DNA of 64,000 nt from positions 1,426,001 to 1,490,000 of the forward strand of contig NZ_CP100454.1 of NCBI RefSeq assembly GCF_024228315.1, read 5' to 3'. Shown one piece after another: positions 27,144 to 44,703 of this stretch; the stretch's first letter is position 1; each line of letters begins with the position of its first letter. This DNA is from Halomarina pelagica. Its GTDB lineage: Archaea; Halobacteriota; Halobacteria; Halobacteriales; Haloarculaceae. Made by a program: the position numbers and the translations under genes. A model generated the notes under the pieces. That model made no database searches. It saw only the letters and a program-made list of their open reading frames with translations, and had not been told where the DNA came from.

Positions 27144-27785
27144 TCACTCCGAGGCGTCGCGGAGGCGCTCCAGTCGGTGCGAGAGCGTGGCGGCGAGCGA
27201 GGAGACGGCGCGCGACCCGAACAGCGCGACGATGAGCGCGCCCAGGGTGTCGAACAGGAGGTCCACCACGGTGTCCTCGACGCCGTACTGGTAGAGGACG
27301 GGGTCGTACCCGGTGAGCGTCCCCACCTCGCGCGCGAGGAACTCGAGGACCTCCCAGAAGACCCCCAGCGCGACGGTGAACAGCAGGATGTAGACGAAGA
27401 GAAACGACTGCGTGAAGTGGACGGCGTCGGAGTGCTCGTCGAGCACCTTCGCGGTGGCGTAGCCGACGGCGGCGACGATCGTCGCGGAGAGGGTGTGTGT
27501 GAGGTGGTCCCACCACCACACCCGGGTGTAGACGCCGAGCATGCCGATCGCGTGGAGCGACAGCGCGGCGGTGATCCACAGCGTCACGCCGGGATCGAGC
27601 GGGAGGCTGAAGTCGCGTTCGAGGACCGCCGGGAGGACGGTGATGGCGAGCGCGACGGCGGCGTTGACCACGACCCCGACGTTGTGCGTGAGGACGCCGG
27701 CGACCAGCACGATCGCGATCGCGACCTGGAACAGGCGGGTGATCCCCCGCTCGGAGACGCCCAGGTACTCCCACACCACGCTCAT
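27144..27785 (-). CDS. DUF2238 (YjdF-like) membrane protein
   Basis: This 213-residue protein has six membrane segments and polar motifs WWWDHLTHTLSA, GVFWEVLEFLAREVG and DTVVDLLFDTLGA, which define the DUF2238 (YjdF) family. The conserved Asp, His and Glu residues within the membrane suggest a metal or substrate site, but no function is known. It is divergent from the DUF457-type gene at 27876. Confidence 0.85.
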   Translation of the reverse strand: MSVVWEYLGVSERGITRLFQVAIAIVLVAGVLTHNVGVVVNAAVALAITVLPAVLERDFSLPLDPGVTLWITAALSLHAIGMLGVYTRVWWWDHLTHTLSATIVAAVGYATAKVLDEHSDAVHFTQSFLFVYILLFTVALGVFWEVLEFLAREVGTLTGYDPVLYQYGVEDTVVDLLFDTLGALIVALFGSRAVSSLAATLSHRLERLRDASE

Positions 27786-34089: not shown

Positions 34090-35695
34090 CCGCTCGACCC
34101 CCCGGCCGCGCGTCGGTCGGCGTCGGTTCCTGCGGGCTGTCGGCGCGGGGACGGCCGCGCTCGCCGCCGCGACCGGCCCCGTGAGCGCCCACGAGTGGAG
34201 CGGCGCGACGAGCGACACCTCGACAGAGGGCGATCACGACCACGGCGACGCGACGCTCCACGGCGCGTCGAGCAACGTCGAACTCGTCGGCTACCACAGC
34301 CTCGGCGGGGTCGGCCCCGCGAGCGAGAGCGGCTCGCCCGACAGCCCCCACTACGGGGCCATCACGGAACTCCGCGTCCGCGGCGACTACGCCTACGTGG
34401 GCGTCTTCTCCTCCGACGACCCGACGAACGACCGCGGGATGGCGATCCTCGACGTGAGCGAGTTCAACGCCGCCGGGACGCCGAGGGAGCTTCGGGAGGC
34501 CGAACTCTCGGTGGTCTCGTTCCTGCGCAACGACAACCCCGCGTCGGCGGTGATGGACGTGAAGGTGAGCGACGACGGGCGATACGCCTTCCTCTCGAAG
34601 CAGCCCTACACGGCGCTGTTCGAGGAGACCGACCCCACCCCCGGGACCGACGGCGAGTCCGCGAGCGTCAGCGCCAGCGCGCTCCAGGCGGTGGACGTGA
34701 GCGACCCCGCACACCCCCGCGTCGTCGGCACCTACGACGCCTGGGACACCGGGCCGCACAACGCCACCTACCACCGCATCCGTGGGAGGGAATACCTCTT
34801 CGCGGTGAAGGACCTCAACGACGGCACCGCGGGGCTGTACGTCTTCGAGTTCGACCGCGCCACGGGCGCGATCCTGCCGGTCAACCGGTGGACCGTCGAC
34901 GGGAACCTACCGTCGGTCGGCGACGGCGGCCTCACCTACGTCCACGACGTAACGGTGCAGGACGACCCCCGACTCGGCGTGCCGGTGGGCTACCTCTCCT
35001 ACTGGGACGCGGGGCTGTACGCGCTCGACCTCTCCGATCCGACCGACGTCTCGGTACTCGGCCACTACTCGATGAACGCCGCCCACTACGCCGAGTCCGC
35101 GCCGGCGTTCGTGGACGGGACGCGCGTCGTCGTCGCCGGCCAGGAGATATCGAGCGTCGCGGACGGCTCGAGCGGGAAGCTCTACCTCCTCGACGCCGAC
35201 GGCCTCGACGACGGGTTCGACGGCGAGGACAACGTCGAGCGGCTGGCCGAGTGGGAGTGGCGCTCGAACGTCACCTTCGAGAACTTCACGCTCAGCCCGC
35301 ACAACTTCCAGGTGACCGCCGACGGCTACGTCCACCTGGGCCACTACCACGGCGGGACGCGCTTCCTCGAGATCGAGCGCGACCCGTGGGCGCTGACCGA
35401 GCGGGGGTACTTCCGGCGCGCCCGGGACGTGCCCGAAGCGTCGAAGATGGAGGGGCTGAACAGCGCCGCGCCGTTCACCTGGTGCGCCGTCGAGCACGAA
35501 GGCGTCACCTACGCCGCCGACGTCAACACCGGCGTCTACGCGCTCCGGTTCGCCCCCGACAGCGGCGGCGACCTGAAGGGCGCGGGTGTGGGGGCCGTCG
35601 CCGCGGGCATCGCCGGCCTCGGCGGCCTGCTCTACCGCCGGGGGAGCGACGCGAGAGGCGCGCCGTCGGGGCCGTTCGACCGAGGGTGGAGGTGA
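34082..35695 (+). CDS. Tat-exported LVIVD-repeat beta-propeller protein with C-terminal anchor
   Basis: This 537-residue protein starts with GRRRFLRAVGAG, a twin-arginine signal. A seven-bladed propeller of LVIVD-type repeats follows; recurring blade ends include MAILDVSEFN, LQAVDVSDPAHPRVV and LYALDLSDPTDVSV, with several histidines (for example GPHNATYH and SPHNFQ) near blade tops. A glycine-rich membrane segment near 505-525 could anchor it. Propellers of this type serve in binding. Co-translation with the upstream subtilase suggests a shared extracellular role, perhaps as partner or docking protein. Confidence 0.87.
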   Translation: MSDRSTPRPRVGRRRFLRAVGAGTAALAAATGPVSAHEWSGATSDTSTEGDHDHGDATLHGASSNVELVGYHSLGGVGPASESGSPDSPHYGAITELRVRGDYAYVGVFSSDDPTNDRGMAILDVSEFNAAGTPRELREAELSVVSFLRNDNPASAVMDVKVSDDGRYAFLSKQPYTALFEETDPTPGTDGESASVSASALQAVDVSDPAHPRVVGTYDAWDTGPHNATYHRIRGREYLFAVKDLNDGTAGLYVFEFDRATGAILPVNRWTVDGNLPSVGDGGLTYVHDVTVQDDPRLGVPVGYLSYWDAGLYALDLSDPTDVSVLGHYSMNAAHYAESAPAFVDGTRVVVAGQEISSVADGSSGKLYLLDADGLDDGFDGEDNVERLAEWEWRSNVTFENFTLSPHNFQVTADGYVHLGHYHGGTRFLEIERDPWALTERGYFRRARDVPEASKMEGLNSAAPFTWCAVEHEGVTYAADVNTGVYALRFAPDSGGDLKGAGVGAVAAGIAGLGGLLYRRGSDARGAPSGPFDRGWR

Positions 35696-44374: not shown

Positions 44375-44396
44375 CGACGGCTGACCGGACATCCGT

Positions 44397-44687
44397 CCTC
44401 CTGGCGGACTGAAAGGGCGAGGGTCCTACGCGAACCCGGAGGCCGCAAGCACCGCAGGGGAGCGAGTGTAACGAGCGAGCCGAGGAGCACAGCGTGTCTC
44501 CCGGGAGCGTAGGACCCGAGGGCTTTCGAGGTGTTCTCGGCTCCTGTCGAGTCGGAACCGTGACCTCGAAAGCCCTCGCGCTCTCGGGTCGGGGGGCTCG
44601 CTGCGCGCGCTCTCTCGCGTCGCTCGTTCGCGTGCTTACGTCGCCCGCCTTCCCCGAGAGCCTTCGCCCGTTCAGTCCACCAGGGGT
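44397..44687. repeat. Four-arm nested inverted-repeat element (cloverleaf-like)
   Basis: The region between the S9 peptidase and serA folds into four abutting stems. The closing stem pairs 44406-44420 with 44664-44678 (14 of 15) and extends outward through CTGG/CCAG at 44401-44404 and 44680-44683. Inside are arm 1 (44421-44431 with 44507-44517, 11 of 11), arm 2 (44518-44532 with 44563-44577, 15 of 15) and arm 3 (44580-44588 with 44653-44661, 9 of 9). At most two bases separate neighbouring stems, as in a four-way junction. No protein is encoded. It may be a structured RNA, a repetitive element or a DNA cruciform. Confidence 0.65.
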
Positions 44688-44703
44688 AGAACTGCCCTCT
44701 GCC

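What the first reader, a model, noticed from the sequence alone, without database searches (positions are those of the whole stretch)
44397..44687. Four-way-junction-like inverted repeat element between the S9 peptidase gene and serA
Four perfect or near-perfect inverted repeats abut each other: a closing stem (44406-44420/44664-44678, one mismatch, extended by CTGG/CCAG) encloses three stems (44421-44431/44507-44517; 44518-44532/44563-44577; 44580-44588/44653-44661) with 0, 0, 2 and 2 unpaired bases between them. Fifty contiguous pairs in this cloverleaf order are very unlikely by chance. It could be a large structured RNA, a palindromic repetitive element or a DNA cruciform. From memory, sequences starting like CTGAAAGGGCGAG recur between haloarchaeal genes, but I cannot confirm it.
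Basis: partly seen in the sequence, partly recalled or inferred. Interest (0 to 1): 0.78.

Follow-up and report, generated by a model that had tools for sequence, protein, structure and literature searches.

The report
Paired hairpin repeat between haloarchaeal genes
The sequence is two back-to-back copies of a roughly 120-letter DNA hairpin that is scattered between genes in most salt-loving archaea (class Halobacteria) and keeps its folded shape by paired mutations; it is repetitive and partly mobile, has no entry in the RNA-family library searched, and its exact job is unknown.

Summary
The four stems lie where stated, in the convergent gap between an S9 peptidase gene and serA (Halomarina genus; fold z = -7.5). 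The "four-way junction" is a by-product: two ~120-nt hairpin units (44401-44527 +, 44568-44683 -) placed head to head. The conserved object is the single unit: CTGGYGGAYTGAAAGGGCGAG – variable stem – core with AAGCAC / GCGCAGCG – stem' – CGAGGGCTTTC. Across 40 units, 23 of 31 pairs show double compensatory changes (0/500 shuffles). A covariance model finds it in 249/292 Halobacteria genomes (66/77 genera), with none in 101 same-phylum genomes outside the class. Copies are intergenic, in either orientation, and vary from 0 to tens per genome. In one genus the units sit inside young MITEs with perfect 8-bp target duplications and ends shared with an IS6-family insertion sequence. Another copy has a fixed place ~540 bp upstream of plasmid ssDNA-binding-protein genes (rfa5/rfa6 type). 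The window copy has no such ends and is probably old; in a 96%-identical relative its hairpins have been swapped. Not in Rfam and not found in the papers searched. Best filed as a new variant of REP/MITE-like interspersed repeats. What the fold does is unproven.

The parts
44397..44687 (.). whole composite: head-to-head pair of two hairpin units filling the convergent gap (44375-44703) between the S9 peptidase gene (+) and serA (-)
44401..44527 (+). unit 1, type A hairpin (CTGGCGGACTGAAAGGGCGAG ... CGAGGGCTTTC)
   Evidence: R1 107.1 bits; alignment A1 row 1
44568..44683 (-). unit 2, type A hairpin in inverted orientation, with a different stem sequence
   Evidence: R1 95.7 bits; alignment A1 row 2
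44528..44567 (.). spacer between the 3' ends of the two units; related spacers in the other Halomarina pairs
   Evidence: own genome; H. halobia
44406..44420 (.). left arm of closing stem (constant 5' end of unit 1); pairs with 44664-44678
44664..44678 (.). right arm of closing stem (constant 5' end of unit 2)
44421..44431 (.). variable stem of unit 1, left arm; pairs with 44507-44517; strongly covarying positions in the family
44507..44517 (.). variable stem of unit 1, right arm
44518..44532 (.). constant 3' end of unit 1; pairs with 44563-44577 in the composite fold
44563..44577 (.). constant 3' end of unit 2
44580..44588 (.). variable stem of unit 2, one arm; pairs with 44653-44661
44653..44661 (.). 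variable stem of unit 2, other arm
44447..44452 (+). AAGCAC, conserved core of unit 1 (A, G, A, C invariant or nearly so in A1)
   Evidence: invariant columns A48 G49 A51 C52
44632..44637 (-). AAGCAC, conserved core of unit 2

Best explanation
The element is an old head-to-head pair of a non-autonomous, hairpin-forming interspersed repeat of the class Halobacteria. SHOWN: the ~120-nt unit has sharp ends and a fold kept by compensatory change; it is dispersed in most Halobacteria; all clusters examined are intergenic and point either way; in at least one genus the units are the cargo of MITEs with IS6-type terminal repeats and 8-bp target duplications; between two close Halomarina species whole hairpins are swapped between sites or deleted. 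INFERRED: copies spread as passengers of transposition supplied in trans (IS6-type transposase in the young cases), then become fixed in gaps between genes, lose recognisable ends, and are reshuffled as blocks by recombination between copies, which helps keep both arms of a stem matched. The invariant core (AAGCAC opposite GCGCAGCG) and the conservation of the fold across some 60 genera suggest the folded single strand is also a recognition site for a nucleic-acid-binding factor. A fixed copy upstream of plasmid ssDNA-binding-protein genes (rfa5/rfa6 type) points to a role in single-strand DNA or RNA handling; this last step is a guess.
For: Own-genome family; sharp ends over 136 units; double changes in 23 of 31 pairs (type A) and 24 of 35 pairs (type B), covariation 0.495 and 0.341 against 0.155 and 0.125 shuffled, at most 0.07 when slid; 249/292 genomes and 66/77 genera against 0 of 101 genomes outside the class; 20 hits from 8 families checked by eye; 0 of 107 clusters inside predicted genes, tandem copies 32 sense and 24 antisense; exact-motif copy number 0-88 per genome with no reversed-pattern control hits; MITE ends and perfect 8-bp duplications and an IS6-family IS with the same ends and an 8-bp duplication; hairpin swapping, hairpin deletion and rearrangement consistent with an 8-kb inversion between copies; fixed copy upstream of rfa5/6-type genes in 22 of 30 loci.
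Against: The window copy has no IS6-type ends and no detectable target duplication; 0 of 19 own-genome units do, so its own route of insertion is not shown. No clean new insertion was seen between the two close Halomarina genomes. The Halomarina pairs have the inverse arrangement of the young MITE pairs. A recognition role for the fold rests on conservation alone.
Confidence: 0.6

Rival explanations
1. The unit is a structured noncoding RNA (regulatory or protein-binding) transcribed from its + strand, present in many copies.
For: Strong compensatory change and an invariant core. G-U exceeds A-C on the unit strand in type A (24 against 4 in pairs common to both strand folds) and weakly in type B (14 against 10). 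The unit strand folds more stably than its complement in 33/40 and 28/28 cases.
Against: No sense bias to neighbouring genes (32:24); no conserved neighbourhood for solitary copies; no Rfam match; copy number varies greatly; half of the type A wobble excess is one column.
Confidence: 0.17
2. A bidirectional terminator or insulator: strong hairpins kept in gaps between genes to stop read-through or protect 3' ends.
For: All 107 clusters lie between genes; the window copy fills a convergent gap; very stable folds.
Against: Frequent in divergent gaps too (26 of 107); the conserved internal core is not needed for a terminator; no T-run follows the units.
Confidence: 0.15
3. A REP/RAYT-like or IS200/IS605-derived (PATE) element moved as single-stranded DNA by a Y1 transposase.
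For: One-sided head (YCCTGGYGGAYT) plus hairpin, clusters in alternating orientation, strand asymmetry: the look of REP elements.
Against: Genomes with 42, 38 and 12 motif copies have no Y1_Tnp gene. None of 47 Y1_Tnp or TnpB loci is bracketed by units. Young copies have IS6-type ends and 8-bp duplications, which Y1 elements do not make.
Confidence: 0.05
4. The four-way junction itself (as RNA or as a DNA cruciform) is the functional object.
For: Perfect cloverleaf in the fold of the window copy.
Against: The (+)(-) pair was seen only in Halomarina; 101 of 107 clusters are single units; other genera pair the units as (-)(+).
Confidence: 0.03

Closest known systems
IS6-family MITEs of haloarchaea (MITE class as in PMC3119063; NCBIfam NF033587 transposase)
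   Same: Short, non-coding, terminal inverted repeats GGTAGTGTTCAGATAAG shared with an IS6-family IS, 8-bp target duplications, in genus g5, Halovenus and several other genomes
   Different: The cargo is a fold-conserved hairpin core that spans a whole class and also exists without these ends, as in the window copy
Small mobile repeats SMR-A of Haloquadratum walsbyi (PMC3119063)
   Same: About 110 bp with prominent inverted ends, tens of copies, mobilisation unexplained, nesting within palindromes of other elements
REP / BIME elements with RAYT transposases (PMC2817692)
   Same: Intergenic palindromic repeats with a conserved one-sided head, alternating clusters, compensatory changes
   Different: About 118 nt with a conserved internal core instead of 20-40 nt; no bracketed Y1 transposase
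PATEs / IS605-type elements of haloarchaea (PMC3119063)
   Same: Non-coding haloarchaeal elements with palindromes
   Different: No unit at the ends of any of 47 Y1_Tnp or TnpB loci
Frpo/ssi single-strand promoters upstream of plasmid SSB genes (PMC11541004)
   Same: A hairpin near plasmid ssDNA-binding-protein genes (rfa5/6 type)
   Different: About 540 bp away, no promoter motif tested, also dispersed in chromosomes; resemblance only

Membership tests
IS6-family MITE | terminal inverted repeats shared with an autonomous IS | tested here: met
   G121/G066 copies, Halovenus L104 and G096 L279 share GGTAGTGTTCAGATAAG with the IS6-family IS in L380. The window copy itself: not met.
IS6-family MITE | 8-bp target-site duplication | tested here: met
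   Perfect 8-bp duplications in 7 of 11 TIR-bracketed elements from G121/G066, also L104 and L279; none found for the window copy.
IS6-family MITE (window copy) | TIR and duplication around this very copy | tested here: not met
   No TIR within 260 bp at up to 2 mismatches; 0 of 19 own-genome units.
REP/RAYT | rayt (Y1) gene flanked by two inverted repeats of the family | tested here: not met
   several high-copy genomes lack Y1_Tnp altogether
REP/RAYT | 20-40 nt palindrome with GTAG/GGAG-type head | tested here: not met
   unit about 118 nt, head YCCTGGYGGAYT
PATE / IS605 | near-terminal palindromes shared with IS605-type transposons | tested here: not met
   47 loci
SMR-A | about 110 bp with inverted ends | tested here: met
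SMR-A | no target duplication | tested here: inconclusive
   young copies with IS6 ends have duplications; the window copy shows none
SMR-A | sequence homology to HqIRS42/43/55 | not testable with these tools
   sequences are in supplements that could not be read
Rfam RNA family | match above the gathering score | tested here: not met
   permissive search of related loci
Frpo/ssi single-strand promoter | transcription start from folded single-stranded DNA | not testable with these tools
   needs in vitro transcription

The most novel reading that the evidence does not exclude
The hairpin is an archaeal single-strand recognition element (ssDNA promoter/initiation site or divergent structured RNA) that belongs functionally to the plasmid ssDNA-binding-protein locus (rfa5/rfa6 type), where it sits at a fixed distance in many genera, and it has been dispersed class-wide into chromosomes by transposition, where some copies still serve as binding sites. 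That would be the first Frpo-like or comparable structured control element of plasmid establishment in archaea.
Probability: 0.18. Interest if true: 0.85.

Novelty: new variant of a known kind. Interest (0 to 1): 0.6.

Why it matters
A fold-conserved hairpin family that covers most genera of a whole archaeal class, moves with IS6-type MITEs and has a fixed place near plasmid SSB genes does not appear in Rfam or in the papers searched. If the fold is recognised by a protein, it gives a tractable handle on single-strand DNA or RNA handling and plasmid establishment in model haloarchaea such as Halobacterium and Haloferax. It also explains genome rearrangement: copies swap hairpins and appear to cause inversions.

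Tried and rejected
Y1 transposase and TnpB as partners: not bracketed by units and absent in several high-copy genomes. Recurrent gene next to solitary copies: none, neighbours are ordinary genes. Rfam: no family. Virus link: no exact match in IMG/VR; the rfa5/6-type protein has no match in phage records. Exact sequence strings in papers: only unrelated primers or genes. Insertion-site comparison between the two close Halomarina genomes: differences were hairpin deletions or swaps, not clean insertions, so no duplication could be read there. An attempted count of TIRs with wrongly formatted locus ids was redone.

Full report
OBSERVATION. The window element was folded and read directly. The fold is far more stable than dinucleotide shuffles (z -7.54, 0 of 200). 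It occupies the convergent gap between the end of the S9 peptidase frame (44374) and the end of serA (44704). Rfam finds only a tRNA elsewhere in the window.

WHAT IT IS MADE OF. A search of the same genome showed many partial and some full copies, often matching on both strands. Printed side by side, they resolve into one unit of about 120 nt that occurs singly or in inverted pairs. The window holds a head-to-head pair: 44401-44527 (+) and 44568-44683 (-), confirmed by a covariance model (107 and 96 bits; next best 13). The cloverleaf order follows from this: each unit supplies one hairpin, and the constant ends of the two units pair with each other.

FAMILY. Over 136 units the ends are sharp: YCCTGGCGGACTGAAAGGGCGAG at the 5' side, CGAGGGCTTTC at the 3' side, then decay. 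There are two core types. Type A (the window's) has AAGCAC opposite GCGCAGCG; type B has CTATCC opposite GGATAT. The consensus fold is one long hairpin with conserved internal loops. For type A, 96.7% of cells pair, 23 of 31 pairs have double changes and covariation is 0.495 against 0.155 in shuffles (0/500); sliding the partners destroys it. Type B behaves the same way. Wobble pairs favour the unit strand, but much of the type A excess comes from one column, so the RNA/DNA and strand question stays open.

DISTRIBUTION. The exact motif occurs in 40 of 292 genomes with 1-88 copies and no reversed-pattern control hits. Twenty hits from eight families were read and all carry the ends and core. 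In a phylum sample, none of the 101 genomes outside the class matched, while 17 of 19 inside did. E-values of this model are rough.

CONTEXT AND DYNAMICS. With a simple gene caller, 107 unit clusters gave 0 inside genes; 58 tandem, 26 divergent and 23 convergent; tandem singles were 32 sense and 24 antisense. No gene family recurs next to solitary copies beyond ordinary paralogues. At the same sites, whole hairpins have been replaced by other variants or deleted, leaving arm scars. The flanks of two copies are rearranged in a way that fits an inversion of about 8 kb between them. Block replacement of a whole hairpin is a simple reason why both arms stay matched, alongside selection.

MOBILITY. 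In genus g5 (G121, G066) nearly identical copies define exact elements of 312 or 362 bp: terminal repeats GGTAGTGTTCAGATAAG / CTTATCTGAACACTACC, perfect 8-bp duplications in most (e.g. ATCGCACG, GCGCACCT, AACTGCAC), and one pair with exchanged flanks, as expected after recombination. Inside lie a (-) hairpin and a (+) type A unit, the opposite pairing to Halomarina. The same ends bracket single units in Halovenus (L104), G096 (L279) and MAG contigs. A viral contig carries a 697-bp IS with these ends, an 8-bp duplication and an IS6-family transposase (NF033587, E 7.5e-59; PF13610). So an IS6-type transposase is the likely mobiliser of the young copies. The 19 own-genome units examined, including the window pair, lack such ends.

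A FIXED COPY. Genomes with a single hit often carry a 112-nt variant that ends a conserved block. The block contains, divergently, a ~298-aa single OB-fold protein: Pfam PF01336 below cut-off, partial match to replication factor A in NCBIfam. Annotated plasmid records call it DNA-binding protein or replication factor A. By description and by its place on Halobacterium minichromosomes it corresponds to the Rfa5/Rfa6 type studied in PMC5924565; the identification with those gene names is an inference. The protein is in 164 of 292 genomes. The hairpin sits at the same place, about 540 bp upstream, in 22 of the 30 best protein loci, including Natronosalvus and Haloferax mediterranei plasmids; the pNRC100 locus itself gave no hit. 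Homology between loci mostly stops at the hairpin's 3' end while the outer neighbours differ.

COMPARISON. The family works like REP/BIME and SMR repeats, but fails the RAYT test (PMC2817692) and the PATE/IS605 test. SMR-A of Haloquadratum (about 110 bp, inverted ends, unexplained mobility; PMC3119063) is the nearest described haloarchaeal class, but its sequences could not be compared. The nearby SSB gene recalls Frpo/ssi promoters (PMC11541004); that is a resemblance only.

VERDICT. A real, class-wide, fold-conserved interspersed repeat with IS6-type MITE ends in young copies. Novelty: a new variant of a known kind. The function of the fold and the insertion route of the window copy are open.

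Noticed in passing
L041, L064, L092, L108, L149, L156 (downstream of units): Tandem arrays repeating the unit's 3' arm (GAGCGCGCCGAGGGCTTTC) with spacers; period is genome-specific (45, 48, 51, 57, 75), nearly all multiples of three. Unexplained.
   Followed up: partly
L038 3040-3110, L340, L055: Another structured module (GGAAGTCGCAGCCCGC ... GAGCAGGACCGTCTTCC) is nested inside hairpin units, so hairpin tips or stems seem to be preferred insertion places.
   Followed up: partly
L038 2080-2880: A cupin-type gene lies between two inverted units with the usual inter-unit module split on both sides, as if captured.
   Followed up: no
L039, L086, L091, L101, L107, L112 upstream of units: Halosimplex copies share a further ~170-nt structured module upstream (GGCTGGGGAGG...), distinct from the Halomarina one.
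   Followed up: no
L366 and L367 (G121): Two identical MITEs have exchanged flanking 8-mers (AGCCCAGC / CTGGCGAA), the signature of recombination between distant copies.
   Followed up: yes
L331-L357, about 300 nt inside the hairpin: A second, weaker R1-like hairpin and a strongly conserved stretch GCCCGGAATGGTCGGTCGCGAGCGACGCGGAGGGCGG lie between the hairpin and the rfa5/6-type gene.
   Followed up: partly
window 27630-27746 and 35102-35219: Weak type B model hits (21-23 bits) in the window, E 0.02-0.05, probably chance.
   Followed up: no
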